Source of the DNA: Hydrogenophaga sp.
GTDB taxonomy: Bacteria > Pseudomonadota > Gammaproteobacteria > Burkholderiales > Burkholderiaceae_C
Assembly: GCA_030684755.1 (NCBI GenBank)
Contig: JAUXXN010000394.1
Span: 1-14,124 of the forward strand
DNA length: 14,124 nt
Reading direction: 5' to 3'
Positions within the stretch are counted from its first letter, which is position 1, and every line of letters begins with the position of its first letter. Of the stretch, positions 2-10,989 are shown piece by piece. The notes beneath the pieces are model-generated. The model saw nothing but the letters and a program-made list of their open reading frames with translations. It was not told the DNA's origin and searched no databases. The position numbers were made by a program, and so were the translations under genes.

Positions 2-1066
2 GTGGGCGATTTCGCGCGCGGCTACGACACCCGCGTGCGGGGCATCGCCTCGCACTTTGTCTGGACCAACCGCAGCAAGGAAAGCCTGACGCTGGACGTC
101 AAGCACCCCGAGGCGCAGGCGATCCTCAAACGCATCATCGAAGAAGAGGCCGACGTGGTGGTGCAGAACCTCGCGCCCGGTGCTGCCGCTCGCCTGGGTC
201 TTTCTTATGAGGTTCTGAGCGCCGCCAAGCCCGGCATCATCGTCTGCGACATCTCGGGCTATGGCGACAGCGGCCCCTACCGCGACAAGAAAGCCTACGA
301 CCTGCTGATCCAGAGCGAGGCTGGTTTCGTCTCGGTCACCGGGACTGAAGACACGCCGTCCAAGGCTGGGCCGTCGATTGCCGACATCGCCGCTGGCATG
401 TACGCGTACACCAACATCCTGGCCGCGCTGCTGCACCGCCAGCAGACCGGGCAGGGCCAGCACATCGACATCTCCATGCTGGAATCCCTGACGGAATGGA
501 TGGGCTACCCGCTGTACTACAGCATCGACGGCGCGGCGCCGCCCAAGCGCACCGGCGCCAGCCATGCCACCATCTACCCGTACGGCCCCTTTCCCGCAGG
601 GGATGGCAAGATCGTGATGCTGGGCTTGCAGAACGAACGCGAGTGGAAGGCCTTTTGTGAACAGGTGCTGTTGCAGCCCGCGCTGGCCAATGACGAGCGC
701 TTCGCGAGCAACCCACTCCGCGTGGCCGCGCGTTCGACCCTCTACGACATCATCGTGAACGCCTTTGCCGGCCTCAGCGCCGCCGAGGTGGTGCAGCGCC
801 TGGAAACGGCGCAGATCGCCAACGCCCAGGTGAACACCATGGCCGAGGTCTGGGCACACCCGCAGCTGGAGGCGCGCCAGCGCTGGACCCAGGTGGACAC
901 CTCGGTCGGTACGGTGCCGGCCCTGCTGCCACCGGGTTCCTGGAGCCAGGGTGCGCCGCGCATGGACGCCGTGCCCGCACTGGGTCAGCACACCGACAGC
1001 ATCCTGAGCGGACTCGGCTACAGCACCATTCAGGTTCAGGCCTTGCGTGAAGAGGGGGCGGTGTGA
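2..1066 (+). CDS. Family III CoA-transferase (CaiB/BaiF type), 5'-truncated by the window edge
   Basis: This protein would move CoA between a CoA thioester donor, often succinyl-CoA, and a carboxylic acid in the cytoplasm. The visible 354 residues lack roughly the first 40 of the usual ~400, so the true start lies left of the window and the GTG at base 2 is not a real start. Family marks are GYGDSGPYRDKKAYD (about residues 87-101 of the fragment) and GQGQHIDISMLES (150-162). The Asp at fragment residue 156 matches the catalytic Asp that forms the acyl anhydride in this family. The stop overlaps the start of the CitE-like lyase gene by four bases (GTGA), which points to translational coupling. 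With that partner, activation of itaconate, mesaconate or citramalate is a reasonable guess, but family III sequences do not reveal the substrate by eye. The family call is firm; the substrate is inference. Confidence 0.9.
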   Translation: MGDFARGYDTRVRGIASHFVWTNRSKESLTLDVKHPEAQAILKRIIEEEADVVVQNLAPGAAARLGLSYEVLSAAKPGIIVCDISGYGDSGPYRDKKAYDLLIQSEAGFVSVTGTEDTPSKAGPSIADIAAGMYAYTNILAALLHRQQTGQGQHIDISMLESLTEWMGYPLYYSIDGAAPPKRTGASHATIYPYGPFPAGDGKIVMLGLQNEREWKAFCEQVLLQPALANDERFASNPLRVAARSTLYDIIVNAFAGLSAAEVVQRLETAQIANAQVNTMAEVWAHPQLEARQRWTQVDTSVGTVPALLPPGSWSQGAPRMDAVPALGQHTDSILSGLGYSTIQVQALREEGAV

Positions 1067-1884
1067 TCCCGACCACCTACCTGTTTGTGCCGGGCAACCG
1101 GCCTGAGCGTTTTGCGAAGGCGCTCGCCAGCGGTGCGGACCGGGTCATTCTCGATCTGGAGGACGCGGTGTTGCCTGCTGACAAGTCACAGGCCCGCCAT
1201 GCCATCGGCGCCTGGCTTGCCACGCTGGAAAACGCCGCGCGCGCCAACATCCTCGTGCGTCTCAACGATGCCTTGAGCCCGTGGCATACCGACGACCTTG
1301 AGTGGTTGTCGGCCCAACCGCTGGGCGAGGTGATGTTGTCCAAATGCGAGTCGGCTGTTCAGGTCGCCTCTGTTCATGCGCGCATGGCACCCAGCGCTCA
1401 GGTGCTGCCCCTGATCGAGACCGTGCGCGGCGTGATGGGCCTGAACGATATCGTCAGTTCGCCCCATGTCTCGCGCCTGGCCTTCGGATCCATCGACTAC
1501 CAGCTTGACCTCGATCTGCCCGGTCCCGGTTTCGCGCTCGATGCGGCCGCCACGGCCATTGCCATGGCCTCACGTGCCGCCGACCTGCCACCACCGGTGG
1601 CAGGGGTCACCCCCGAACTTGCCGCTGAACGCGTGAATGCCGACCTGCTGCACGCCCGAGCCCTGGGCTTCACCGCCAAGCTTTGCATCCACCCGACGCA
1701 AGTGGGTGTGGTGCGCGAAGCCTTGCGACCCGATGCCCAAACGCTGGCATGGGCATCCCGTGTGAACAGCGCCTGGCAGACAGGGAGTGGCCAGGGTGCC
1801 ATACAGGTCGACGGCCGCATGGTTGACAAACCTGTGGTGCTGCGTGCCCAGCGGATTCTGGCCCTGGCCGATCTGACCCATTGA
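1063..1884 (+). CDS. CitE-like CoA-ester lyase (HpcH/HpaI aldolase/citrate lyase family)
   Basis: A 273-residue TIM-barrel lyase of the CitE-like group, which cleaves beta-hydroxyacyl-CoA thioesters such as malyl-CoA or citramalyl-CoA. The N-terminus carries LFVPGNRPERFAKA (7-20) and VILDLEDAV (28-36). R66 in VRLND is a likely CoA/substrate contact. E119 in LIETVRG and D145 in FGSIDYQLDL fit the two Mg2+ ligands of the family. KLCIHPTQV (206-214) is the usual C-terminal motif. The start is a GTG inside the stop of the CoA-transferase gene (overlap 1063-1066), so the pair is probably co-translated. A CoA-transferase beside a CitE-like lyase is the arrangement expected for activating and then splitting a C5 acid, for example (S)-citramalyl-CoA to acetyl-CoA and pyruvate. 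Malyl-CoA cleavage is the main alternative. Confidence 0.9.
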   Translation: MIPTTYLFVPGNRPERFAKALASGADRVILDLEDAVLPADKSQARHAIGAWLATLENAARANILVRLNDALSPWHTDDLEWLSAQPLGEVMLSKCESAVQVASVHARMAPSAQVLPLIETVRGVMGLNDIVSSPHVSRLAFGSIDYQLDLDLPGPGFALDAAATAIAMASRAADLPPPVAGVTPELAAERVNADLLHARALGFTAKLCIHPTQVGVVREALRPDAQTLAWASRVNSAWQTGSGQGAIQVDGRMVDKPVVLRAQRILALADLTH

Positions 1885-1912
1885 CAACATCATTTCATTT
1901 CTGAGGAACACC

Positions 1913-3265
1913 ATGGCAGCCACCATCATCGACTCGCGCATTTTCGGCGACATCTTCAGCGACGCGCGAATGCGCCAGGTCTGGTCGGACGAGAACCGCA
2001 CCGCCAAGTACCTGGACATCGAACGCGCACTGGCCAAGGTCCAGGGCGAGCTCGGCATCATCCCCCAAGAAGCCGCTGACGAAATCGTCCAGCACTGCGA
2101 GCTGTCCATGATCGACTGGGACCAGCTCAAGGCCAAGACCGAGCAGATCGGTTACCCCATCATCGCGGTGGTCAACCAGATCAACGCCAACTGCCGAGAC
2201 CGGCTCGGTGAGTATTGCCACTGGGGCGCGACCACGCAGGACATCACCGACACCGCCGCGGTGCTGCAGATGCGTGAAGGCCTCGCGCTGGTCGAGCAGG
2301 ACCTCAAGGACATCTCGGATGCGCTGGCGGCGCTGGCTCAGAAGTACCGCGACACCCCCGTCATCGGACGCTCCAACCTGCAGCAGGCCACGCCGATCAC
2401 CTTCGGCTACAAGATGGCCAGCATTCTGGCCGGCATCGAACGCCACCGCGAACGCCTGCAGCAGCTAAAGCCGCGCGTGCTCATGGGTGAGTTCGGTGGT
2501 GCTTCGGGCACGCTGTCGTCGCTGGAAAAGGGCGCGATGGAAACTCAGGCTGCGCTGATGAAAGAACTGGGTCTGGCGCAGCCCCTGATCTCCTGGCACA
2601 CCGTGCGCGACACCATTGCCGAGGTGGGTGCCTTCCTCGGTCTGGTGGGCGGGTCGCTGGGCAAGATTGCCATGGACGTGAAGCTCATGATGCAGACCGA
2701 GGTGGGCGAGGTGTTCGAACCCTTCGCGCCGGGCCGTGGGTCTTCGAGCACCATGCCGCAAAAGCGCAACCCGATTTCCTGCCTGTATATCCACGCCAAT
2801 ATTTCGGTGGCGCGCCAGCACGCCGCCGCCCTTATGGATGCCATGGTGGCCGACCATGAGCGTTCCACCGGTCCCTGGGAAATCGAATGGGTGTCGCTGC
2901 CCGAGATCTTCTGCCTCATGTCGGGTGCGCTGAAACAGACCAAGTTCGTGCTGCAGGGCCTGGAGGTGGACGCCACCCGCATGCGCGCCAACATGGACAT
3001 CACCCATGGACTGGTCATGTCCGAAGCCGTGATGATGGGCCTGGGGCCTTACCTGGGCCGTGAATACGCACACGATCTGGTGTACGACCTGTGCCGCCAG
3101 GCGCTGCGCGAAAACCGGCCGCTGATCGACGTGCTCGAAGCGCACCCGGAGATCAACTGCCACGTCAACAGGGCACAACTCGAAGCCCTGTGCAACCCGG
3201 AGAACCACCTGGGGCAGGCTGGCGTGATGGTGGATCGCGTACTGGCTGCTCGCCAAGTCCGCTGA
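1913..3265 (+). CDS. Fumarase/aspartase superfamily lyase, PcaB-like; candidate trans-aconitate decarboxylase
   Basis: A 450-residue cytoplasmic enzyme, probably a homotetramer like its relatives. The three conserved superfamily blocks are present: HWGATTQDITDT (103-114), GRSNLQQATPITFG (152-165) and the signature GSSSTMPQKRNP (276-287), whose serines 278/279 sit on the mobile catalytic loop. The second block resembles 3-carboxy-cis,cis-muconate cycloisomerase (PcaB) more than adenylosuccinate lyase, and residue 155 is Asn where hydro- and ammonia-lyases have His. A helical ADSL_C-type tail follows. There are no pca genes nearby, so a muconate role is unlikely. The neighbours are tcuA, tcuB and a PrpF-family gene. 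The fungal trans-aconitate decarboxylase Tad1 belongs to this same superfamily, which makes decarboxylation of trans-aconitate to itaconate an attractive inference. C-N or C-O lyase activity on a polycarboxylate is the alternative. The start ATG follows GAGGA at 1903-1907. Confidence 0.85.
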   Translation: MAATIIDSRIFGDIFSDARMRQVWSDENRTAKYLDIERALAKVQGELGIIPQEAADEIVQHCELSMIDWDQLKAKTEQIGYPIIAVVNQINANCRDRLGEYCHWGATTQDITDTAAVLQMREGLALVEQDLKDISDALAALAQKYRDTPVIGRSNLQQATPITFGYKMASILAGIERHRERLQQLKPRVLMGEFGGASGTLSSLEKGAMETQAALMKELGLAQPLISWHTVRDTIAEVGAFLGLVGGSLGKIAMDVKLMMQTEVGEVFEPFAPGRGSSSTMPQKRNPISCLYIHANISVARQHAAALMDAMVADHERSTGPWEIEWVSLPEIFCLMSGALKQTKFVLQGLEVDATRMRANMDITHGLVMSEAVMMGLGPYLGREYAHDLVYDLCRQALRENRPLIDVLEAHPEINCHVNRAQLEALCNPENHLGQAGVMVDRVLAARQVR

Positions 3266-3271
3266 ATCATC

Positions 3272-4708
3272 ATGCCGAGAACAGATGAAATACCTGCGGT
3301 TGACGTGCTGGTCATCGGCGGCGGAAACGCCGCACTCTGCGCCGCCCTGATGGCGCGCGAGGCCGGCGCCAGCGTCTTGCTGCTGGAATCCGCACCGAAA
3401 GAGTGGCGTGGCGGCAACTCTGCCCACACCCGCAACCTGCGCTGCATGCACGACGCGCCGCAAGACGTGCTGGTTGACGCCTACCCCGAAGAAGAGTTCT
3501 GGCAAGACCTGCTCAAGGTCACCGGCGGGCTGACCAATGAAACGCTGGCGCGCCGCGTGATCCGCGACTCGGGTACCTGCCGGCCCTGGATGCGCAGCCA
3601 CGGCGTGCATTTCCAGCCTTCGCTGTCGGGCGCACTGCACACGGCCCGCACCAACGCCTTCTTCATGGGTGGCGGAAAGGCGCTGATGAACGCCTATTTC
3701 CGAAGCGCTGAGCGTCTGGGGGTACAGGTTCGGTATGAGGCACCGGTGGACCGGCTGGAATTGCGCGACGGGCTCTTTGTCGCCGCGTACGTGGGCACCG
3801 AGCGCATCACCGCCCGCAGCTGTGTGCTGGCGGCCGGTGGCTTCGAGTCCAACCGCGAATGGTTGCGCGAAGCCTGGGGCACCAACGAGCGCGGTGAGAC
3901 GCCGTCCGACAACTTCCTGATCCGGGGCACCCGTTTTAACCAGGGGGTGCTGCTGCGCCACTTGCTCGACGACCACGGAGCCGATGCGATCGGCGATCCG
4001 ACCCAAGCTCACATGGTCGCCATCGACGCACGCGCGCCGCTCTATGACGGCGGCATCTGCACCCGCATTGACTGCGTCTCGCTGGGCGTGGTGGTCAACC
4101 GCGACGCACGTCGCTTTTACGACGAGGGTGAAGACTTCTGGCCCAAGCGCTATGCCATCTGGGGCCGTCTGGTGGCGCAGCAGCCCGGGCAAATCGGCTA
4201 TTCCATCATCGACGCCAAAGCCATCGGTCGCTTCATGCCACCGGTATTCCCCGGTGTGAAGGCCAACACGCTGCCCGAATTGGCCGGGCAACTGGACTTG
4301 GACAAAGACACATTTATGCAAACCTTGACCGATTACAACAGCGCCTGCCGCGTCGGCACGTTTGACCACACAGCACTAGACGATTGCCACACCGAAGGCG
4401 TTGTACCGGCGAAGACCCACTGGGCACGTCCGATCGACACGGCGCCGTTCTACGCCTATGCGCTCAAGCCCGGGGTGACATTCACCTACCTGGGTCTGAA
4501 GACCGATGAGTCCGCCGCCGTGCGCTTCGGCGATGTGCCCAGCCCCAACCTGTTCGTGGCGGGCGAGATGATGGCCGGCAACGTGCTGGGCAAGGGCTAT
4601 ACCGCCGGTGTCGGCATGTCCATTGGTACGGCTTTCGGGCGTATTGCCGGTACCGAAGCCGCTCGCTCGGCGATGAGCCTCAAGGAGGGTCGGCATGTTG
4701 TCGCTTGA
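3272..4708 (+). CDS. tcuA: FAD-dependent tricarballylate dehydrogenase TcuA
   Basis: A 478-residue flavoprotein of the fumarate reductase/succinate dehydrogenase flavoprotein family, close in length to Salmonella TcuA (about 467). TcuA oxidises tricarballylate to cis-aconitate and passes electrons to TcuB. The N-terminal FAD dinucleotide fold is [16 protein letters not shown] (11-26), ending in an acidic residue (E39) after the second strand. GGNSAHTRN (47-55) is the family's flavin-contact loop, and the C-terminal FAD segment runs from FVAGE (428-432) through [18 protein letters not shown] (440-457). No twin-arginine or Sec signal is visible, so it is cytoplasmic or docked on TcuB at the membrane. 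It starts six bases after the PcaB-like lyase gene with only a weak ribosome site, and overlaps tcuB by 14 bases. Side activity on a related tricarboxylate cannot be excluded from sequence. Confidence 0.88.
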
Positions 4709-5867
4709 ATCGCTGGTGAAAGACGCCCGGTCGCTTGCTTCCGGGGCGGACGGTTCGTCGGCTGCGGTGGACGAGGTGACGCGGCAGATGGCCATCTGCA
4801 ACGCCTGCCGCTACTGCGAAGGCTTCTGCGCGGTGTTCCCGGCCATGACCCGACGGCTCGAATTCGGCCCAGCCGATATCCACTATCTGGCCAACCTGTG
4901 CCACAACTGCGGCGCCTGCCTGCACGCGTGTCAATACGCACCTCCCCACGAGTTCGCGGTCAATGTGCCGCAGGCCATGGCGAAGGTGCGGGGTGAAACC
5001 TATGTGGCCTATGCCTGGCCCCAGCCGCTGGGAGCGCTCTACGAGCGCAATGGCCTGACCGTGTCGCTCGCACTGGCCGCTGGACTGGCGCTGTTCCTGA
5101 TCCTGGCCCTGGCGCTGAACGGCACCGTGTGGGGAGGGGACCTGGGCGGAAACTTCTACAACCTGTTCCCGCACAACCTGCTGGTGCTGATGTTCGCGCC
5201 CGTGTTTCTCTGGGCTGTACTGGCCCTGGGCATTGGCGTCACGCGATTCCTGCGCGATGTGTCACCCGCGACGACGGGGCAAGCGGTGGCCAGTGGTGAT
5301 GCGGTGCAGGCTGCGCGCGATGTGGCGACGCTCAAGTACCTGGATGGTGGTCACGGGGAGGGCTGTCACAACGAGGACGATGCCTACTCCTTGTCGCGCC
5401 GACGTGCCCATCACCTGACCTTCTACGGCTTCATGCTGTGTTTTGCCGCGACCAGCCTGGCCACGGTGTACCACTACGTCTTTGGCTGGGAAGCGCCCTA
5501 CGACCTGCCCAGCCTGCCCAAGGTCCTGGGTGCCGTGGGTGGGGTGAGCCTGCTGCTGGGGACGGCCGGTTTGTTTCGCCTGAAATGGTCGCGGCACCCG
5601 CTGCACGGCGACGCTGCTCAGAAGCCCATGGACTACGGTTTCATCGCACTCCTGTTTCTCACCAGCCTGACCGGGCTGTTGCTGTGGTGGCTGCGCGGCA
5701 CCGATGCCTTGGCGCTCATGCTCGCTCTGCACCTTGGCGTTGTGATGGCCTTGTTCGCTACGCTGCCGTATGGCAAGTTTGCGCACGGCATATTCCGCAC
5801 GGCAGCCTTGATTCGCTTTGCCGTAGAGCGGCGCCAGCCGAGCAGCTTGGCTCTGAGCGATGACTGA
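4695..5867 (+). CDS. tcuB: Tricarballylate utilisation 4Fe-4S membrane protein TcuB
   Basis: A 390-residue electron-transfer partner of TcuA, matching the TcuB/CitB layout (Salmonella TcuB is about 380). The cytoplasmic N-terminus has two clusters of the form CxxCxxCxxxC, at C35/C38/C41/C45 and C69/C72/C75/C79, consistent with two [4Fe-4S] centres. Several hydrophobic membrane segments follow, at about 121-141, 162-185, 238-260, 275-291, 313-330 and 335-355. Histidines in the motifs HHLTFYGF and HLGVVMALF could bind heme b or shape a quinone site; this is inference. It would reoxidise the TcuA flavin by sending electrons to the quinone pool. A strong ribosome site, AAGGAGGG (4683-4690), lies inside the end of tcuA, so the two proteins are made together. 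Confidence 0.9.
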
Positions 5868-5876
5868 CCAAGAACG

Positions 5877-6536
5877 GTGAACAAGCACCGATGGAGCCAA
5901 ACATTGAAAAACACCTCACCCCATAAGCCGGTCAGCGACCGCCTGGATGAACACGCTTGCGCACCCCCCAGCAGCTTGTCCGCGCTTTTTTGGGGATTCA
6001 GCATGTTGTCGCTCCAGGGCTTCGGTGGTGTGATGGCCGTGACCCAGCGTGAGCTGGTGGAACGACGGCGGTGGCTCTCCCGAGACGAGTTTCTGGAGGA
6101 TTGGGCCGTGGCGCAGGTTTTGCCCGGACCCAACGTGGCCAACCTTGGGGTGCTGCTCGGAGACCGTTACCTGGGCTGGCGGGGCGCCCTGACCTCGTTG
6201 CTCGGCCTGTTTTTGTTTCCCTTGGTCATCATCACCCTGTTAGCCATGACCTTCACCACCTTTCAGCACCTGCCTGTGGTCCAAGGTGCATTGAAGGGCA
6301 TGGGGCTGGTGGTGGTCGCCCTGATACTGACCACAGCGTTCAAACTCATGGCGGCGCTGCGAGCCCACGTCGGAGGCGTGATTTTCTGCGTCATTTCTGT
6401 CGTGACAAGCTTTGTGGCTGTCGCCATTTTGCGCTTTCCCCTGGTCTGGGTCTTGCTCATCGTTGGCACCCTGTCCTGTCTTTGGACCTACCGCTGTATC
6501 GTCGCCGCTCCGGTCGTCGAAGGGTCCGACACATGA
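5877..6536 (+). CDS. Chromate transporter family protein, N-terminal half type (short ChrA)
   Basis: A half-size CHR-family membrane protein of 219 residues from the GTG at 5877, or 210 from the TTG at 5904. The TTG has GGAG at 5893-5896 with a 7-base spacer and is the better-supported start. No in-frame ATG precedes the conserved core. Family marks are SMLSLQGFGGVMAV near the start of the membrane domain and VLPGPNVANLGVLLG, which carries the PGP motif. Four to five hydrophobic segments follow. CHR proteins are oxyanion permeases best known for chromate efflux; short ones work as pairs of unlike halves, and the second half follows with a four-base overlap. Lying between tcuB and a PrpF-like gene, this pair may move an organic acid or another anion linked to the pathway rather than chromate. 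That is inference; the family call is firm. Confidence 0.88.
   Translation: MNKHRWSQTLKNTSPHKPVSDRLDEHACAPPSSLSALFWGFSMLSLQGFGGVMAVTQRELVERRRWLSRDEFLEDWAVAQVLPGPNVANLGVLLGDRYLGWRGALTSLLGLFLFPLVIITLLAMTFTTFQHLPVVQGALKGMGLVVVALILTTAFKLMAALRAHVGGVIFCVISVVTSFVAVAILRFPLVWVLLIVGTLSCLWTYRCIVAAPVVEGSDT
5893..5906 (+). promoter_or_regulatory. Ribosome binding site and TTG codon, likely true start of the first short ChrA gene
   Basis: GGAG at 5893-5896 is followed by seven bases and then TTG at 5904-5906, in frame with the ChrA-family protein. The upstream GTG at 5877 has only a weak AAGAACG before it. This favours a 210-residue product. Confidence 0.45.
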
Positions 6537-7102
6537 CCGAGCTCGGCTGGATGGACTGGTTGGGCCTGTTGCTGCATTTCGGCATGCTTTCGCTTCTGTC
6601 GGTGGGTGGCGGCATCAGCGTGCTGCCCTACATGCACCGGTACTTGGTGGATCAACACGGGTGGCTGACGCCGCAACAGTTCGCCTCGTCGGTGGCTTTG
6701 GCCCAAGCTGCGCCAGGTCCGAACGTGTTGTTTGTGGTCCTCATGGGCTGGAATGTGGGCGTCAACGCAGGCAGCCTGCTCCTGGGAGTGCTGGGAGCCA
6801 CGCTGTGTTTGTTAGGGCTGCTGATCCCCAGCTCCGTGCTCACGCTGTACGCCACCCGGTGGGCCCAACGCAACCGGCTGCGTCCCGGTGTCCAGGCCTT
6901 CAAGAGGGGTTTGACGCCTATGGTGGTGGCGCTGCTGGCCTCCACCTCCTGGCTGCTGCTTAAGCCCCACCTCACGGGCGACGGCATGGTCACGACGAGC
7001 CTGCTGGTAGTGGGAGCGACACTGATACTGTGGCGCACATCGATTCACCTGTTGTGGGTCCTGGCCGCCGGTGCTTTCATCGGTGGTATGGGCTGGGTCT
7101 GA
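6533..7102 (+). CDS. Chromate transporter family protein, C-terminal half type (short ChrA)
   Basis: A 189-residue half-size CHR-family membrane protein that should pair with the preceding half. Its frame is open from base 6071, but the ATG at 6533, overlapping the upstream stop as ATGA, gives the family's expected N-terminus. Recognisable segments are LSVGGGISVLPYMHRYLV (about 22-39) and AQAAPGPNVLFVV, with the PGP motif of the family. About five hydrophobic stretches span the rest. The two halves differ clearly in sequence, as expected for a two-gene CHR transporter with opposite topologies. The short gap of 15 bases to the PrpF-like gene keeps it within the same transcription unit. Substrate is unknown; chromate, sulfate-like anions or a pathway organic acid are all possible. 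Confidence 0.87.
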   Translation: MTELGWMDWLGLLLHFGMLSLLSVGGGISVLPYMHRYLVDQHGWLTPQQFASSVALAQAAPGPNVLFVVLMGWNVGVNAGSLLLGVLGATLCLLGLLIPSSVLTLYATRWAQRNRLRPGVQAFKRGLTPMVVALLASTSWLLLKPHLTGDGMVTTSLLVVGATLILWRTSIHLLWVLAAGAFIGGMGWV

Positions 7103-7117
7103 AATCTAGGAGACAGC

Positions 7118-8365
7118 ATGCACACCATTCATCATCCCTCGGCACCCCTCCCGTTAAGCCTGCTTACCACGCCCCCCTTCCTGAGTCATGGCGTGTTGCA
7201 TTTTCCAGTCAGCTACATGCGGGGGGGCACCTCCACGGGGGTCATCATCTGGGGTCCGCACTTGGCTCCCCTGGCCGATGTGAAGGAAGAGATCCTCCGC
7301 AAGATCATGGGCGTTCCCGACGAGGGCGAGCTCAAGGGCAACAGACAGATCACCGGTCTGGGGCGCGGCCCGGCCACCAGCAACAAAGTGTTCATCATCG
7401 AGCCTGCCGATGGCTCTCAGGCCGACTTCAACAGCACCCTTGCCCAACTGGCGGCGGAAAAATCCGCCATCGACTGGAGTGTCAACTGCGGCAACATGTC
7501 GGCCGCCATTCCGCTGTTCCTGCTGAACAACGGTTTGGTGACTGCGGGGAACCCCCTTACGCACATACGGGTATTCAACACCAACACCGGGGTGGTGACC
7601 GACTGCCGGGTTCCCACGCCCGATGGCCTGCCGACAATACCCGCTGACACGGCCATTCCCGGCGTGTATGGCCGGTTTCCGGGCGTGGAGCTGAGCCTGA
7701 GAGACCCGGTGGGCTCCAAGACCGGGCAGCTCCTGCCCACTGGGCAGGTGCGCGACACCTTCGACGGTATCGAGGTCAGTTGTGTGGATGTTGCTGTACC
7801 CATGGTGATCATTCGAGCCGATGCCGTGGGCATGCGTGGCGACGAATCGGTGGCAAGCCTGAATGCCCATGCACCGCTCAAAGAAAGACTGCGTTCCATC
7901 TGGGTGCAGGCCGGCCTGGCGATGCAACTCAAGAAGAAGGGCATTTCCATGACCGCCGACGAATTGGCCTCCAGCGAAACCGTGCCCAAGGTCTGTCTGG
8001 TCTCCAGTCCCACACAGGGCGGACACATCTCGGTGCGCTACTTCACGCCCCAGGAGTCGCATGCGTCGCTGGCCGTCACGGGCGGTTGCTGTCTGGCCAC
8101 GGCCTGCCTGATTCCGGGCACCACCGCACACGAAGTGGCCACCAGCCTTGAGCCCTTGTCAGCCAACAATGCGCAGTGTGAGGTTTCCATGGAAAACCCG
8201 GCAGGCATCTTGCGGGCCCGCGTCTTCGGCAGGCGCCTTGCCGACGGTGGCTTTGCATTCCCCTGGGTGGCCTACGAGCGCAATGCCCAACTTTATCTGG
8301 ACGGCCATTTCAGAATCCACCAGCCCTCGGCGCGGCTCGTGGAGCAGGTCACTGCCATGACTTGA
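7118..8365 (+). CDS. PrpF-family isomerase (aconitate / methylaconitate isomerase or 4-oxalomesaconate tautomerase type)
   Basis: A 415-residue cytoplasmic protein of the PrpF family, which shifts double bonds or cis/trans geometry in unsaturated tricarboxylates. The fold is two diaminopimelate-epimerase-like halves. Visible marks are SYMRGGTSTG (32-41), GRGPATSNK (82-90), SVNCGNMSAAIP (121-132) and, in the second half, AVTGGCCLATACL. K90 and C124 line up with the active-site Lys and Cys reported for Shewanella PrpF (offset of 17 for both, from memory). The first motif has Thr at 40 where most family members have Lys (MRGGTSKG). The N-terminus carries about 25 extra low-complexity residues. 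AGGAGA at 7108-7113 precedes the ATG. With tcuAB and the PcaB-like lyase nearby, cis- to trans-aconitate isomerisation, as by fungal Adi1 of this family, is the favoured role; 4-oxalomesaconate tautomerase is less likely because no gallate genes are present. Confidence 0.88.
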   Translation: MHTIHHPSAPLPLSLLTTPPFLSHGVLHFPVSYMRGGTSTGVIIWGPHLAPLADVKEEILRKIMGVPDEGELKGNRQITGLGRGPATSNKVFIIEPADGSQADFNSTLAQLAAEKSAIDWSVNCGNMSAAIPLFLLNNGLVTAGNPLTHIRVFNTNTGVVTDCRVPTPDGLPTIPADTAIPGVYGRFPGVELSLRDPVGSKTGQLLPTGQVRDTFDGIEVSCVDVAVPMVIIRADAVGMRGDESVASLNAHAPLKERLRSIWVQAGLAMQLKKKGISMTADELASSETVPKVCLVSSPTQGGHISVRYFTPQESHASLAVTGGCCLATACLIPGTTAHEVATSLEPLSANNAQCEVSMENPAGILRARVFGRRLADGGFAFPWVAYERNAQLYLDGHFRIHQPSARLVEQVTAMT

Positions 8366-8396
8366 CAAACTCGGAAAAAAACATTTAGCCAACCCC

Positions 8397-8409
8397 TGTG
8401 AAGTTCACA
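8397..8409. promoter_or_regulatory. Perfect 13-base inverted repeat next to the ribosome site of the dehydrogenase gene
   Basis: TGTGAAGTTCACA is a perfect 6-1-6 palindrome that ends one base before the ribosome site AAGGAGA (8410-8416) of the gene starting at 8423. It is too compact for the usual CRP spacing (TGTGA-N6-TCACA). It could be an operator for an unlinked regulator or a small hairpin near the start. There is no T-run, so it is not a terminator. Confidence 0.35.
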
Positions 8410-8422
8410 AAGGAGACACAAC

Positions 8423-9382
8423 ATGAAAATCGCCATCCTGGAAGACTATCAAGACGCCGTACGCAAACTCCCCTGCTTCGCGCTGCTTGATGGACATGAG
8501 GTCGATGTTTTCACCGATCCCCTGAGCGAAGACGAAATGGTCCAGCGACTCGCCGATCACGAAGCGCTCGTGCTGATCCGGGAGCGCACGAACATCACCG
8601 CCTCCTTGCTGGCGCGACTGCCCAGGCTCAGACTCATCTCCCAGACCGGTAAGGTCAGCGGCCATGTGGACGTTGAAGAAGCGCAGCGCCGGGGTGTCAC
8701 CGTGATGGAAGGTGTGGGCGACCCCACCGCACCAGCGGAACTCACCTGGGCCTTGCTGATGTCCGCCTACCGGCGCATACCCCAGTATGTGGCGCATATG
8801 AAGGCGGGACATTGGCAGATGGTTTCTGCAGATCCCGCGCACAACCTCATTGGACGTGCCGTCAAGGGTGATGTGCTGGGCATCTGGGGCTACGGAAAAA
8901 TCGGGCAACGCATGGCCCGCTACGGCAAGGCCTTCGACATGGAGGTCCTCGTCTGGGGCCGCGAGGCCAGTCGGGACAAGGCCCTGGCCGATGGCCTTCG
9001 GGTGGCCGAATCCAAGGAAGCGTTCTTCCGGCAGGCCGACATCGTCAGCCTGCACCTGCGTCTGAACGACGCCACCCGGGAAATCGTGAAAGCCAGCGAC
9101 CTGGCCCAGATGAAGCCGACAGCGTTGCTCGTCAACACCAGCCGCTCGGAACTGATCGAGACGGGTGCGTTGCTGGCGGCTTTGACCCGTGGCCAACCGG
9201 GCCATGCCGCGCTGGACGTGTTCGACCACGAGCCCATCAACCCAAACGACCCCCTGCTGATGCTGGACAACGTGGTCACCACCCCCCATTTGGGCTACGT
9301 GGAGCACAAGGGCTATGAGCTGTATTTTTCGGCGGCGCTGCGCAATGTGTTGGCGTTTGCTGCACGGGATGGCGCTGAATGA
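8423..9382 (+). CDS. D-2-hydroxyacid dehydrogenase, probably NADP-preferring
   Basis: A 319-residue cytoplasmic oxidoreductase of the D-isomer-specific 2-hydroxyacid dehydrogenase family, interconverting a 2-oxo acid and a D-2-hydroxy acid. The catalytic domain surrounds a Rossmann domain with GIWGYGKIGQRMARYG (153-168). The catalytic triad is visible as R241 in NTSRS, E270 in DHEP and H289 in TPHLG. After the second beta strand the sequence is VLVWGREASR, with no acidic residue where NAD-specific members usually have Asp and with nearby Arg, which suggests NADP. It begins 57 bases after the PrpF-like gene behind a clear AAGGAGA ribosome site, and its stop overlaps the GNAT gene by four bases. 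Its substrate is not evident; glyoxylate, hydroxypyruvate or a branched 2-oxo acid are possible. It is not an obvious step in the pathway proposed for the upstream genes. Confidence 0.9.
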   Translation: MKIAILEDYQDAVRKLPCFALLDGHEVDVFTDPLSEDEMVQRLADHEALVLIRERTNITASLLARLPRLRLISQTGKVSGHVDVEEAQRRGVTVMEGVGDPTAPAELTWALLMSAYRRIPQYVAHMKAGHWQMVSADPAHNLIGRAVKGDVLGIWGYGKIGQRMARYGKAFDMEVLVWGREASRDKALADGLRVAESKEAFFRQADIVSLHLRLNDATREIVKASDLAQMKPTALLVNTSRSELIETGALLAALTRGQPGHAALDVFDHEPINPNDPLLMLDNVVTTPHLGYVEHKGYELYFSAALRNVLAFAARDGAE

Positions 9383-9888
9383 GCCACCCCAGGGCAAACA
9401 CAGGGGTCGGCCCCGTGAACTTCCGTCTGGCGACAGCGAAAGACCTGCCGGCCATTGTCGGCATGCTGGTCGACGACCCACTCGGCGCCCAACGCGAGTG
9501 CCTGACCAATCCGCTTGCGCCCGCATATCTGGCGGCGTTTGAGGCTATCGACAAGGATCCGAACAACGAACTGGTGGTGGCCGAAGACCAAGATGGAAAC
9601 GCCATCGCCACGCTCCAGCTGACCTTTACCCCCTACATCACCCACCAAGGGGGCTGGAGAGCCAGCATGGAGGGCGTTCGAGTGGCCAGCCACTTCAGAG
9701 GCATCGGCCTGGGAAGGCAGCTGTTGACCTGGGCCATCGCCAGGGCCCGGCAGCGCCGCTGCCATGTCATCCAGCTCACAACGGACAAGCAGCGCGCTGA
9801 CGCGCAACGCTTCTACGAAACCTTGGGGTTTGTGGCCACACATGAGGGCATGAAGCTCAAGCTCGCGTTGGATCCCGCGAGCATCTGA
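9379..9888 (+). CDS. GNAT family N-acetyltransferase
   Basis: A 169-residue single-domain GNAT protein that would transfer an acetyl group from acetyl-CoA to an amine. The acetyl-CoA pyrophosphate loop is RGIGLGRQLL (107-116), matching R/QxxGxG/A. AQRFYETLGF (142-151) is the usual C-terminal motif with Y146 as the likely general acid. The ATG at 9379 overlaps the dehydrogenase stop as ATGA, giving tight coupling. A GTG at 9415, giving the start of NFRLATAKD, is an alternative that would remove 12 poorly conserved residues. The acceptor is unknown: small molecule, peptide or protein. Its coupling to the dehydrogenase is the only clue to its job. Confidence 0.88.
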   Translation: MSHPRANTGVGPVNFRLATAKDLPAIVGMLVDDPLGAQRECLTNPLAPAYLAAFEAIDKDPNNELVVAEDQDGNAIATLQLTFTPYITHQGGWRASMEGVRVASHFRGIGLGRQLLTWAIARARQRRCHVIQLTTDKQRADAQRFYETLGFVATHEGMKLKLALDPASI

Positions 9889-9897
9889 TGCTATCGA

Positions 9898-9913
9898 CCA
9901 AGGGTGGCCTTGG
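9898..9913 (+). other. Short hairpin between the GNAT and AbrB-family genes
   Basis: CCAAGG, a GTGG loop and CCTTGG form a perfect 6-bp stem nine bases after the GNAT stop. No T-run follows, so it is not a simple intrinsic terminator. It may slow RNA decay or be chance. The GTG in its loop (9904) could open the next reading frame but is an unlikely start. Confidence 0.25.
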
Positions 9914-9948
9914 GACTGATCCGTTGTCTCCAATTCCGGACATTGCAC

Positions 9949-10989
9949 ATGCCCCTTCATCTGATACCGCGCTCGGGAACACTGGCCTTGGCTCTCCTGG
10001 GGGCTGGACTGTTTTACTTCCTGGGTCTGCCACTGCCTTTCCTGTTCGGGCCCATGACGGCCTGCTTGCTTGCAGCACTTGCAGGGGCACGTCTCAAAGG
10101 GATGGGTACCGTCTCGACCGCGGCACGGACGATTCTGGGCGTCGCCATCGGCGCCTCGATCACGCCAGAGATCGTGGCCCGCATCCCACAGATGCTTGGC
10201 AGCGTGGCTCTGGTGCCACTTTATGTGGCATTGATCGGCCTGGTGGGTGTGCCGTTTTTTCGACGCCTCGGTTATGACCCCGCCACGGCTTGGTATGCGG
10301 CCATGCCCGGGGGGTTGCCGGACATGGTGGCATTCGGCAAAGAGGCCGGTGGCGATGCCCGTGCACTGGCGCTGATCCATGCAACCCGGATGCTGATCAT
10401 TGTGACCGTGGCGCCGATCATTCTGACCCTGCTGTATGGTGCCACCCTGACCGGTGCTTTGGGCGAGCCTGCGCGCAACCTGCCTCCAATCGAATTGGCC
10501 TTGATGGCGGCAGCCGCGGTGATCGGCTGGAAGGGGGGCGAGAGAATCGGTCTCTTTGGCGCGTCGATCCTGGGACCCATGATCATCTCGGCGGCGCTGT
10601 CACTGGGCGGATTCATCCACTCACGCCCACCGGTCGAGGCCATCCTGGTTGCTCAGGTGTTCATCGGCCTGGGGATCGGGGTGCAATACGTGGGTGTGAC
10701 CGTGCGCGAATTACGTGGCTTCATCGTCTCAGGGATCTTGTTCGTCGCCCTGCTGGCCCTGCTGGCTGCGGCTTTCACCGAAATCGTGACCCTGTCGGGC
10801 CTGGCCAAACCAGTTGAAGGATTCTTGGCTTTTGCACCTGGAGGCCAAGCAGAGATGACTGTTTTGGCACTGGCCGCCGGTGCAGACCTGGGCTTCGTGA
10901 TCCTGCACCACGTGACACGAGTGGTGACGGTGATTCTGGGTGCTCCGGTCGCAGCGAGGTGGGCAGGAATCAGGAAGCACAAGCAATGA
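9949..10989 (+). CDS. AbrB-family integral membrane protein (duplicated AbrB domain), putative transporter
   Basis: A polytopic inner-membrane protein of 346 residues from the ATG at 9949; the frame also allows a GTG at 9904 adding 15 residues. The internal duplication of the family is visible: LFGPM (32-36) matches ILGPM (207-211), and PGGLPDM (120-126) matches PGGQAEM (297-303). HHVTR (320-324) is the usual end motif. About nine to ten hydrophobic segments cover the chain. It is not related to the DNA-binding AbrB of Bacillus. Members are sometimes misnamed ammonia monooxygenase; E. coli AbrB is linked to aidB expression and no transport substrate is firmly established. Here it ends the accessory gene run, 60 bases after the GNAT gene. 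A role in uptake or export of a pathway acid is only inference. Confidence 0.85.
   Translation: MPLHLIPRSGTLALALLGAGLFYFLGLPLPFLFGPMTACLLAALAGARLKGMGTVSTAARTILGVAIGASITPEIVARIPQMLGSVALVPLYVALIGLVGVPFFRRLGYDPATAWYAAMPGGLPDMVAFGKEAGGDARALALIHATRMLIIVTVAPIILTLLYGATLTGALGEPARNLPPIELALMAAAAVIGWKGGERIGLFGASILGPMIISAALSLGGFIHSRPPVEAILVAQVFIGLGIGVQYVGVTVRELRGFIVSGILFVALLALLAAAFTEIVTLSGLAKPVEGFLAFAPGGQAEMTVLALAAGADLGFVILHHVTRVVTVILGAPVAARWAGIRKHKQ

What the first reader, a model, noticed from the sequence alone, without database searches (positions are those of the whole stretch)
2..8365. Candidate bacterial route from tricarballylate/aconitate through itaconate to pyruvate and acetyl-CoA
Seen: one + strand run holds a family III CoA-transferase, a CitE-like lyase, a PcaB-like fumarase-superfamily protein, TcuA, TcuB and a PrpF-family protein. 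Known: TcuAB makes cis-aconitate from tricarballylate. In Ustilago maydis, Adi1 (PrpF family) makes trans-aconitate and Tad1 (fumarase/aspartase superfamily) decarboxylates it to itaconate. Itaconate is degraded by a CoA-transferase, a hydratase and a CitE-like citramalyl-CoA lyase. Inference: these parts form one pathway that bypasses aconitase and the TCA cycle. I am not aware of this combination being described in bacteria.
Basis: partly seen in the sequence, partly recalled or inferred. Interest (0 to 1): 0.85.

Follow-up and report, generated by a model that had tools for sequence, protein, structure and literature searches.

The report
Bacterial trans-aconitate-to-itaconate breakdown pathway
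A bacterium, probably a Hydrogenophaga, carries a gene cluster that very probably turns the plant acid trans-aconitate into itaconate with a decarboxylase known from a smut fungus, and then splits the itaconate into ordinary cell fuel; this would be an unrecognised bacterial pathway hidden behind wrong gene names.

Summary
In detail: one tight + strand run holds a class III CoA-transferase (5' end cut by the contig edge), a CitE-type lyase, a "PcaB-like" protein, TcuA, TcuB, two chromate-transporter-like genes and a PrpF-family protein. The "PcaB-like" protein is the key. Its best solved relative is Ustilago maydis trans-aconitate decarboxylase TAD1 (57.6% identity, no gaps over 436 aa). It falls with TAD1 in a fully supported clade apart from true PcaB and shares TAD-only residues, including Ser320, replaced in one solved TAD1 variant. 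The clade sits beside a Pseudomonas-like itaconate-degradation set (hydratase, class III CoA-transferase, lyase) in 47 of 65 loci with enough upstream DNA, and beside none of 20 related genes outside the clade. The hydratase missing from the window lies, in relatives, just where its contig ends. The cassette also occurs on Bradyrhizobium, Azospirillum, Variovorax and Cupriavidus plasmids. So the core route trans-aconitate to itaconate to acetyl-CoA + pyruvate is well supported by sequence; no activity is shown. The tricarballylate entry (TcuAB) is an optional add-on (15 of 62 loci), and the window's PrpF is not the usual partner type. Ten searches of an open-licence paper library turned up no bacterial TAD.

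The parts
2..1066 (+). Class III CoA-transferase, 5' end cut by the contig edge (354 of about 393 aa); proposed succinyl-CoA:itaconate CoA-transferase
   Evidence: PF02515 301 bits; best NCBIfam match succinate--glutarate CoA-transferase 227 bits, cut-off 750 not met; PDB: formyl-CoA transferase 187 bits, 9br7 succinate--hydroxymethylglutarate CoA-transferase 163 bits; full-length 393 aa in L004
1063..1884 (+). CitE-type lyase, proposed (S)-citramalyl-CoA lyase
   Evidence: PF03328; RipC_Ccl 130 bits, cut-off 375 not met, above citE 110 bits; best PDB 'acyl-CoA lyase beta chain' 8khl/9nzb 170 bits against 106 for the next
1913..3265 (+). Proposed trans-aconitate decarboxylase (TAD), 450 aa; relatives are annotated PcaB or adenylosuccinate lyase family
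   Evidence: PDB best hit TAD1 9h3i, 547 bits, ungapped over 436 aa, against 382 for CMLE 1re5; TAD clade 100/100; signature residues incl. S277 = TAD1 S320
3272..4708 (+). TcuA, FAD-dependent tricarballylate dehydrogenase
   Evidence: NF006130 765 bits (cut-off 369), TIGR02485 711 bits (cut-off 373)
4695..5867 (+). TcuB, tricarballylate utilization 4Fe-4S protein
   Evidence: NF011607 677 bits (cut-off 524), TIGR02484 409 bits (cut-off 247)
5877..6536 (+). Chromate_transp-family half-size membrane protein, role unknown (substrate transport possible)
   Evidence: PF02417 121 bits
6533..7102 (+). Second Chromate_transp-family half-size membrane protein
   Evidence: PF02417 124 bits; start codon located
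7118..8365 (+). PrpF-family protein, proposed aconitate (cis/trans) isomerase
   Evidence: PF04303 220 bits; OMA_tautomer 279 bits, cut-off 440 not met; prpF 117 bits, cut-off 440.6 not met; Lys of the SNKV and Cys of the NCGN motif conserved with other PrpF proteins; only PF04303 hit in this incomplete genome
8423..9382 (+). D-2-hydroxyacid dehydrogenase, travels with this PrpF type
   Evidence: PF02826; same order in L015, L007, L165
9379..9888 (+). GNAT-like protein, same module (family name recalled; not scanned)
   Evidence: ORF; conserved next to PrpF and D2HDH in L015, L007, L165
9904..10989 (+). AbrB-family membrane protein, same module
   Evidence: PF05145 249 bits; conserved in L015, L007, L165

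Best explanation
The run encodes a catabolic pathway for aconitate-type tricarboxylates that goes through itaconate. Trans-aconitate, taken up as such or made from cis-aconitate by a PrpF-family isomerase, is decarboxylated to itaconate by the 1913-3265 protein. The class III CoA-transferase makes itaconyl-CoA. A FAS1/MaoC-type hydratase, encoded just upstream in relatives and not on this contig, makes (S)-citramalyl-CoA, and the CitE-type lyase splits it into acetyl-CoA and pyruvate. In this and some related genomes TcuAB adds tricarballylate as an entry by oxidising it to cis-aconitate. Shown here: gene content, order, orthology, active-site signature and conserved partnership. Inferred: every reaction, the direction of flux and the tricarballylate link. 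The confidence given is for the core, trans-aconitate to itaconate to acetyl-CoA + pyruvate.
For: TAD: PDB best hit TAD1 E 4e-163, 547 bits, ungapped. Identity 57.6% to TAD1, 42.9% to CMLE 1re5, 48.8% to 3c8t. TAD clade 100/100 with fungal TAD1 inside it. Ser at TAD1 S320, changed to Ala in solved variant 9h4h, in 44 of 44 TAD-clade rows; Ala in 16 of 16 3c8t-type rows, Gly in 16 of 16 CMLE-type rows. Signature SNKSES in 78 of 78 readable of 80 loci. Partners: of 65 TAD loci with at least 4.5 kb upstream, hydratase in 59, CoA-transferase in 55, CitE in 49, all three in 47; 0 of 20 control loci have any of the three. Hydratase: two PDB matches, 8khg 'Itaconyl-CoA hydratase' and 8huc 'MaoC_dehydrat_N domain-containing protein', both 240 bits. 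Hydratase and CoA-transferase stand with TAD in 5 of 5 fetched plasmid loci (of 7 records at 60-80% identity). A PrpF within 10 kb in 31 of 47 loci with 6.5 kb on both sides. A 73%-identical relative of the window's PrpF lies in L165 in the order LysR, aconitase AcnA, TctC, TctA, PrpF, D2HDH, GNAT-like, AbrB.
Against: No enzyme activity is shown. The window protein passes one PcaB model (TIGR02426, 359.2 bits, cut-off 355.75), though it misses NF006554 (514 against 595). Neither lyase nor CoA-transferase reaches an NCBIfam cut-off, and the hydratase matched no NCBIfam model. The hydratase was not found in the held, 82.6% complete genome. Of the 65 loci 6 lack the hydratase, 10 the CoA-transferase and 16 the CitE gene. 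One plasmid TAD (Komagataeibacter, L150) has no itaconate genes nearby. TcuA is within 10 kb in only 15 of 62 loci. The window's PrpF misses both PrpF-family cut-offs, and of 8 other loci of this PrpF type only 2 have TctA beside it. I315, mutated in one solved TAD1 variant, is Ala in the window, as in CMLE.
Confidence: 0.82

Rival explanations
1. The core (TAD plus itaconate degradation) is right, but TcuAB and PrpF are only neighbours: tricarballylate is oxidised to cis-aconitate and burned through aconitase, and no flux runs from tricarballylate to itaconate.
For: TcuA is within 10 kb of TAD in only 15 of 62 loci. A relative of the window's PrpF sits in a run with an aconitase gene and without TAD.
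Against: In 9 of 62 loci TcuA directly follows TAD on the same strand, 6 bases apart in the window, which suggests co-transcription. TcuAB's product and TAD's substrate are one isomerisation apart, and a PrpF gene is in the same run.
Confidence: 0.35
2. The lyase acts on a different unsaturated tricarboxylate, or yields mesaconate or citraconate instead of itaconate, and the CoA-transferase and hydratase work on that product.
For: The CoA-transferase also scores with succinyl-CoA:mesaconate CoA-transferase (168 bits, far below its cut-off of 700). Class III CoA-transferases are promiscuous (PMC5592240, passages).
Against: All six signature positions match TAD1. One of the hydratase's two PDB matches is named itaconyl-CoA hydratase, and the lyase scores higher with RipC/Ccl than with citE.
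Confidence: 0.08
3. The protein is an ordinary 3-carboxy-cis,cis-muconate cycloisomerase (PcaB) or adenylosuccinate-type lyase, as relatives are annotated in public records.
For: TIGR02426 cut-off just met; public names say pcaB or adenylosuccinate lyase family.
Against: Separate clade from two solved CMLEs. CMLE has Thr-Trp and Gly where TAD has Ser-Asn and Ser. No protocatechuate-pathway gene is among the annotated neighbours in L145-L147 (incomplete gene tables), and the partners are itaconate-type genes.
Confidence: 0.04

Closest known systems
Ustilago maydis itaconate biosynthesis (Adi1 + Tad1; PMC4720413, passages)
   Same: PrpF-family isomerase plus TAD of the same clade and active-site signature
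   Different: The fungus makes and exports itaconate; here itaconate-degrading genes are next door, so the direction is probably catabolic. The window's PrpF could not be compared with Adi1 (no sequence at hand).
Pseudomonas/Cupriavidus itaconate degradation cluster (CoA-transferase PA0882, itaconyl-CoA hydratase, citramalyl-CoA lyase; PMC12290011, passages; PMC9875883, abstract and outline)
   Same: Class III CoA-transferase (the P. aeruginosa enzyme is mentioned among class III enzymes in PMC5592240, passages), MaoC-type hydratase and CitE-type lyase
   Different: Here they are joined to TAD, which would make the itaconate inside the cell. The saprophyte clusters carry methylsuccinate genes, and PMC12290011 names macrophages and fungi as the two known itaconate sources.
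Bacterial trans-aconitate assimilation TarA/TarB/TarR of Bacillus velezensis (PMC11495376, passages)
   Same: PrpF-family aconitate isomerase for growth on trans-aconitate
   Different: TarA turns trans-aconitate into cis-aconitate; 'itacon' has no occurrence in the main text.
Salmonella tricarballylate utilization tcuABC (recalled)
   Same: TcuA and TcuB over their curated cut-offs
   Different: No tcuC or regulator gene was recognised in the window's scanned genes. In the known system cis-aconitate goes to the TCA cycle (recalled).
PcaB, 3-carboxy-cis,cis-muconate cycloisomerase
   Same: Same superfamily, 42.9% identity to 1re5; passes one PcaB model
   Different: Different clade and different active-site residues

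Membership tests
Trans-aconitate decarboxylase (TAD1 family) | Groups with characterised U. maydis TAD1 apart from CMLE | tested here: met
   100/100 clade of 44 rows; again 99 by SH-aLRT, 60 rows, with plasmid rows added
Trans-aconitate decarboxylase (TAD1 family) | TAD residues S197, N198, K300, S320, E366, S413 (choice of positions is mine) | tested here: met
   All identical in the window; SNKSES in 78 of 78 readable of 80 loci and in none of the 35 non-TAD rows listed
Trans-aconitate decarboxylase (TAD1 family) | Makes itaconate from trans- but not cis-aconitate | not testable with these tools
   Needs purified protein; known for TAD1 (PMC4720413, passages)
PcaB / CMLE | Curated score cut-offs | tested here: inconclusive
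   TIGR02426 met (359.2 against 355.75); NF006554 not met (514 against 595)
PcaB / CMLE | CMLE clade and CMLE residues (Thr-Trp, Gly) | tested here: not met
   Outside the 1re5/1q5n set; Ser-Asn and Ser instead
Tricarballylate dehydrogenase TcuAB | NCBIfam cut-offs of TcuA and TcuB | tested here: met
   765 against 369; 677 against 524
PrpF-type aconitate isomerase | PrpF family with the catalytic Lys and Cys motifs | tested here: met
   PF04303 220 bits; SNKV Lys and NCGN Cys aligned with six other PrpF rows; matched by motif to K73/C107 of PMC5690661 (passages), not aligned to that protein
PrpF-type aconitate isomerase | Same PrpF type as in other TAD loci | tested here: not met
   35-36% identical to that type in four plasmid loci; OMA_tautomer 279 against cut-off 440, while two TAD-linked PrpFs score 484 and 489
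Pseudomonas-type itaconate degradation | Class III CoA-transferase, hydratase and citramalyl-CoA lyase together | tested here: inconclusive
   CoA-transferase and lyase in the window; hydratase only in relatives, not found in the own genome; RipC_Ccl cut-off not met
Pseudomonas-type itaconate degradation | Itaconyl-CoA formation and cleavage measured | not testable with these tools
   Needs enzyme assays

The most novel reading that the evidence does not exclude
A whole family of bacterial trans-aconitate decarboxylases, hidden under the names pcaB and adenylosuccinate lyase, forms a partly plasmid-borne route that burns plant trans-aconitate (and, where TcuAB is present, tricarballylate) through itaconate while avoiding aconitase, which trans-aconitate inhibits. 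It would be a third natural source of itaconate besides fungi and macrophages, and the smut-fungus itaconate enzyme was taken from such bacteria.
Probability: 0.6. Interest if true: 0.82.

Novelty: new variant of a known kind. Interest (0 to 1): 0.72.

Why it matters
Trans-aconitate is a common plant acid and an aconitase inhibitor (a 1949 paper on this stands in the reference list seen). The bacterial route in the papers I saw isomerises it to cis-aconitate. A decarboxylating route that ends in acetyl-CoA and pyruvate would be a second solution, would give saprophytes a reason to keep itaconate-degrading genes that has nothing to do with macrophages, would correct the names of many genes now called pcaB, would supply bacterial TADs for itaconate production, and would make the origin of the Ustilago enzyme testable.

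Tried and rejected
Ordinary PcaB: rejected on clade, residues and neighbours, although one PcaB model is met. Chance adjacency: rejected, the order is conserved in diverged loci. Hydratase elsewhere in the own genome: none found, which proves little in an 82.6% complete genome (the tool itself warns that an empty answer shows nothing). G533, an alphaproteobacterial hit at 58% to a bacterial TAD: lacks the signature (TH, M, G, H) and the partners, so it is not counted as TAD. Comparison of the window's PrpF with Adi1, TarA or TbrA: not possible, no sequences at hand. The homology search with the window's PrpF (best 120 of 1342 listed) showed PrpF relatives of 58-99% identity, none of them named as a tested isomerase. 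The promoter scan gave 1 hit against a shuffle mean of 2.2: uninformative; terminator-like sites 21 against 11.6, not used. No structure prediction was run, as the TAD1 match is ungapped.

Literature: 10 searches of an open-licence library. No paper on a bacterial trans-aconitate decarboxylase turned up, judged from the listings and abstract starts (one search listed 20 of 29 papers, 20 of 94). I opened passages of PMC4720413, PMC12290011, PMC11495376, PMC13188880, PMC5690661, PMC5592240 and PMC12460153, and the outline of PMC9875883. Subscription papers and preprints are not covered, and I found no paper for the TAD1 structures, so what their authors say about bacterial relatives is unknown to me.
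Full report
WHAT IS THERE. The window is the whole of contig C403 of an incomplete genome (3.62 Mb, 689 contigs, 82.6% complete). Three held genomes of its genus (G011, G015, G035) have contigs of the same lengths as contigs named Hydrogenophaga (L033, L005, L008), so I take the genus to be Hydrogenophaga (inference). From base 2 to 10989 eleven + strand genes follow each other with gaps of -14 to +57 bases (coordinates): CoA-transferase III, CitE-like lyase, PcaB-like protein, TcuA, TcuB, two Chromate_transp proteins, PrpF, D-2-hydroxyacid dehydrogenase, a GNAT-like protein (name recalled), AbrB. The CoA-transferase is cut by the contig edge: 354 aa against 393 aa in L004.

THE KEY PROTEIN. 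Against the PDB the 450-aa protein matches Ustilago maydis trans-aconitate decarboxylase 1 first (9h3i, 547 bits, E 4e-163, no gap over 436 residues), then 3c8t "Fumarate lyase" (466), then the CMLEs 1re5 (382) and 1q5n (354). Identity is 57.6% to TAD1, 48.8% to 3c8t, 42.9% to 1re5 and 40.6% to 1q5n; TAD1 itself is 37.7% identical to 1re5. A search with TAD1 (best 120 of 7980 listed) shows TAD1 itself, two further fungal-type rows of 84-89% identity (one named Pseudozyma hubeiensis), and then proteins of 60-64% identity; the named ones come from Stellaceae, Geminicoccaceae, Xanthobacteraceae and Betaproteobacteria. In a maximum-likelihood tree of 82 rows the window protein, its Burkholderiales kin, these proteins and the fungal TADs form one clade of 44 rows (support 100/100), apart from the CMLE set and from a 3c8t-type clade. 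A second, quicker tree with plasmid rows agrees (60 rows, SH-aLRT 99).

ACTIVE SITE. Solved TAD1 variants in the PDB differ from 9h3i at least at G123, I315, S320 and R360 (read by eye from the alignments, numbered). G123 (one gap among 44 TAD rows) and R360 are shared by all groups; I315 is not conserved inside the TAD clade (the window has Ala, as CMLE has). S320 is diagnostic: Ser in 44 of 44 TAD-clade rows including the window (S277), Ala in 16 of 16 3c8t-type rows, Gly in 16 of 16 CMLE-type rows. So are S197-N198 (Thr-Trp in CMLE, Thr-His in 3c8t-type) and E366 (His or Gln in those groups). The six-residue signature SNKSES occurs in 78 of 78 readable sequences of the 80 loci and in L084-L087, and in none of the 35 other rows listed. 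That S320 and the others are catalytic is inferred; I did not see the structure paper.

PARTNERS. A scan of genome contigs (one genome for each of 84,980 species) gave 266 stretches that encode relatives; the best 80 (84-98% identity, most of them named as Burkholderiales) were kept. Of the 65 with at least 4.5 kb upstream, 59 have the hydratase, 55 the CoA-transferase and 49 the CitE gene within 5 kb upstream on the same strand, and 47 have all three. The misses are listed there (six without hydratase: L050, L055, L074, L076, L079, L081). As a control I took 20 loci of homologues, 18 and 2, with 6.7-9.9 kb on each side; 19 of them were tested and lack the signature, one (L144, 41% identical) was not tested. 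None of the 20 has the hydratase, CoA-transferase or CitE gene at E 1e-15; four have a TctC-like gene, the only scanned partner seen there. The 80 loci were picked by similarity to the window, so these counts describe this lineage and not all bacteria.

THE MISSING HYDRATASE. The gene directly upstream of the CoA-transferase in relatives is a FAS1/MaoC-type protein, 286 aa in L015 (7103-7960). It has two PDB matches, 8khg "Itaconyl-CoA hydratase" and 8huc "MaoC_dehydrat_N domain-containing protein", both 240 bits. The lyase matches best the PDB "acyl-CoA lyase beta chain" entries 8khl/9nzb, which I believe to be the Pseudomonas citramalyl-CoA lyase (recalled). The P. aeruginosa itaconate CoA-transferase is mentioned among class III enzymes in PMC5592240 (passages). 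So the set looks like the Pseudomonas kind of itaconate degradation, here joined to TAD.

BEYOND THIS LINEAGE. In the plasmid collection 37 records match a bacterial TAD at E 1e-100, 7 of them at 60-80% identity. I fetched 5 of those 7: all 5 have the signature, the hydratase and the CoA-transferase; CitE was seen in 2, a PrpF of the TAD-linked type in 4. The plasmid of Bradyrhizobium sp. CB82, predicted conjugative, reads LysR, dctA, MaoC, CoA-transferase, CoA ester lyase, TAD. Azospirillum brasilense reads LysR, PrpF, dctA, MaoC, CoA-transferase, TAD. Of the 30 records below 60% I fetched four: three lack signature and partners (L151-L153) and one, Komagataeibacter (L150), has the signature but no partners. 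The trait is patchy. Among the window's genome and 59 relatives, 4 of the 59 have a TAD-level match (88-97%; the one in G011 has an in-frame stop). In a sample of 398 Pseudomonadota genomes only the window's own lies above 55% identity to the query; the 29 other matches whose DNA was returned all lack the signature, the rest (48% or less) were not tested. In 385 Alphaproteobacteria genomes one match passed E 1e-165, and it lacks the signature.

TRICARBALLYLATE AND PrpF. TcuA and TcuB pass their cut-offs clearly. TcuA follows TAD directly in 9 of 62 loci with at least 4.5 kb downstream and lies within 10 kb in 15 of 62: an optional front end. A PrpF gene lies within 10 kb in 31 of 47 loci with 6.5 kb on both sides; in 30 of these it is of one type, mostly a PrpF-TctC fusion (a cluster of 39 loci with a median length of 695 aa; two checked, 674 and 696 aa), with an unfused relative in Azospirillum. 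One fusion and the Azospirillum protein pass the OMA-tautomerase model (489 and 484 bits, cut-off 440). Adi1's closest known homologue is also an oxalomesaconate tautomerase (PMC4720413, passages). The window's PrpF is another type (35-36% identical to these in four plasmid loci, 279 bits on that model); L005 carries both types. It keeps the Lys and Cys motifs of the family and is the only PF04303 protein found in its genome. Of 8 other loci of this type (L165-L172), one reads LysR, AcnA aconitase, TctC, TctA, PrpF, D2HDH, GNAT-like, AbrB (L165); one has TctA and TctB next to PrpF (L166); one short contig has a TctC-like gene (L167); four have none of the scanned genes, and in the one looked at the next gene is RNase E (L168-L171, L168); one has a distant TctC-like and a weak D2HDH-like match (L172). 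An aconitase and a tricarboxylate transporter beside it fit an aconitate isomerase, but weakly.

MECHANISM, STEP BY STEP. Shown: genes, order, orthology, residues, conserved partnership. Inferred: tricarballylate to cis-aconitate (TcuAB); cis- to trans-aconitate (PrpF, probability about 0.6 for this particular PrpF); trans-aconitate to itaconate (about 0.88); itaconate to itaconyl-CoA, citramalyl-CoA, then acetyl-CoA + pyruvate (about 0.85, hydratase assumed to lie off the contig). The route avoids aconitase but its products enter the TCA cycle, so "bypasses the TCA cycle" is too strong.

NOVELTY. Bacterial trans-aconitate use as described in PMC11495376 and PMC13188880 goes by isomerisation to cis-aconitate (passages); 'itacon' has 0 occurrences in the main text of either. 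PMC12290011 (passages) states that two sources of itaconate in ecosystems are known, macrophages and fungi. Ten library searches turned up no bacterial TAD, judged from listings and the passages named. Each enzyme type is known; the combination, its direction and its bacterial distribution appear new. I therefore call it a new variant of a known kind.

Noticed in passing
L016:14807-16894, L147:13850-15871, and others of the 80 loci: PrpF-TctC fusion proteins (674-696 aa in the two checked, PF04303 then PF03401 in L016): an isomerase domain fused to a solute-receptor domain, next to TAD; the receptor domain would be cytosolic (inference)..
   Followed up: partly
P0121, P0122, P0130, L150: Fungal TAD1 lies inside the TAD tree with P0130/P0136 (source unnamed, presumably bacterial) and a Komagataeibacter plasmid protein: horizontal transfer between bacteria and smut fungi is likely, direction not tested.
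   Followed up: partly
L150:8001-9422: TAD-signature gene on a Komagataeibacter plasmid predicted conjugative, with transposase and recombinase genes around it and no itaconate genes found nearby.
   Followed up: partly
L151, L152, L153: Members of the 3c8t-type group (Ala at the TAD Ser320 position) sit beside a GntR regulator and a cation:dicarboxylase symporter gene; function unknown, annotated pcaB or adenylosuccinate lyase family.
   Followed up: no
L165:1565-12804: LysR, AcnA aconitase, TctC, TctA, PrpF, D2HDH, GNAT-like, AbrB in one run: perhaps a trans-aconitate route through aconitase that shares its PrpF-AbrB module with the window.
   Followed up: partly
window 5877-7102: Two half-size chromate-transporter-family genes inside a carboxylate operon, also near TAD in L004, L005 and L015 (3 of 47 loci): they may move an organic acid and not chromate.
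   Followed up: no
L145-L149: The TAD cassette is carried by large plasmids in Bradyrhizobium, Azospirillum, Variovorax and Cupriavidus, from a plant, soils and sewage sludge.
   Followed up: partly
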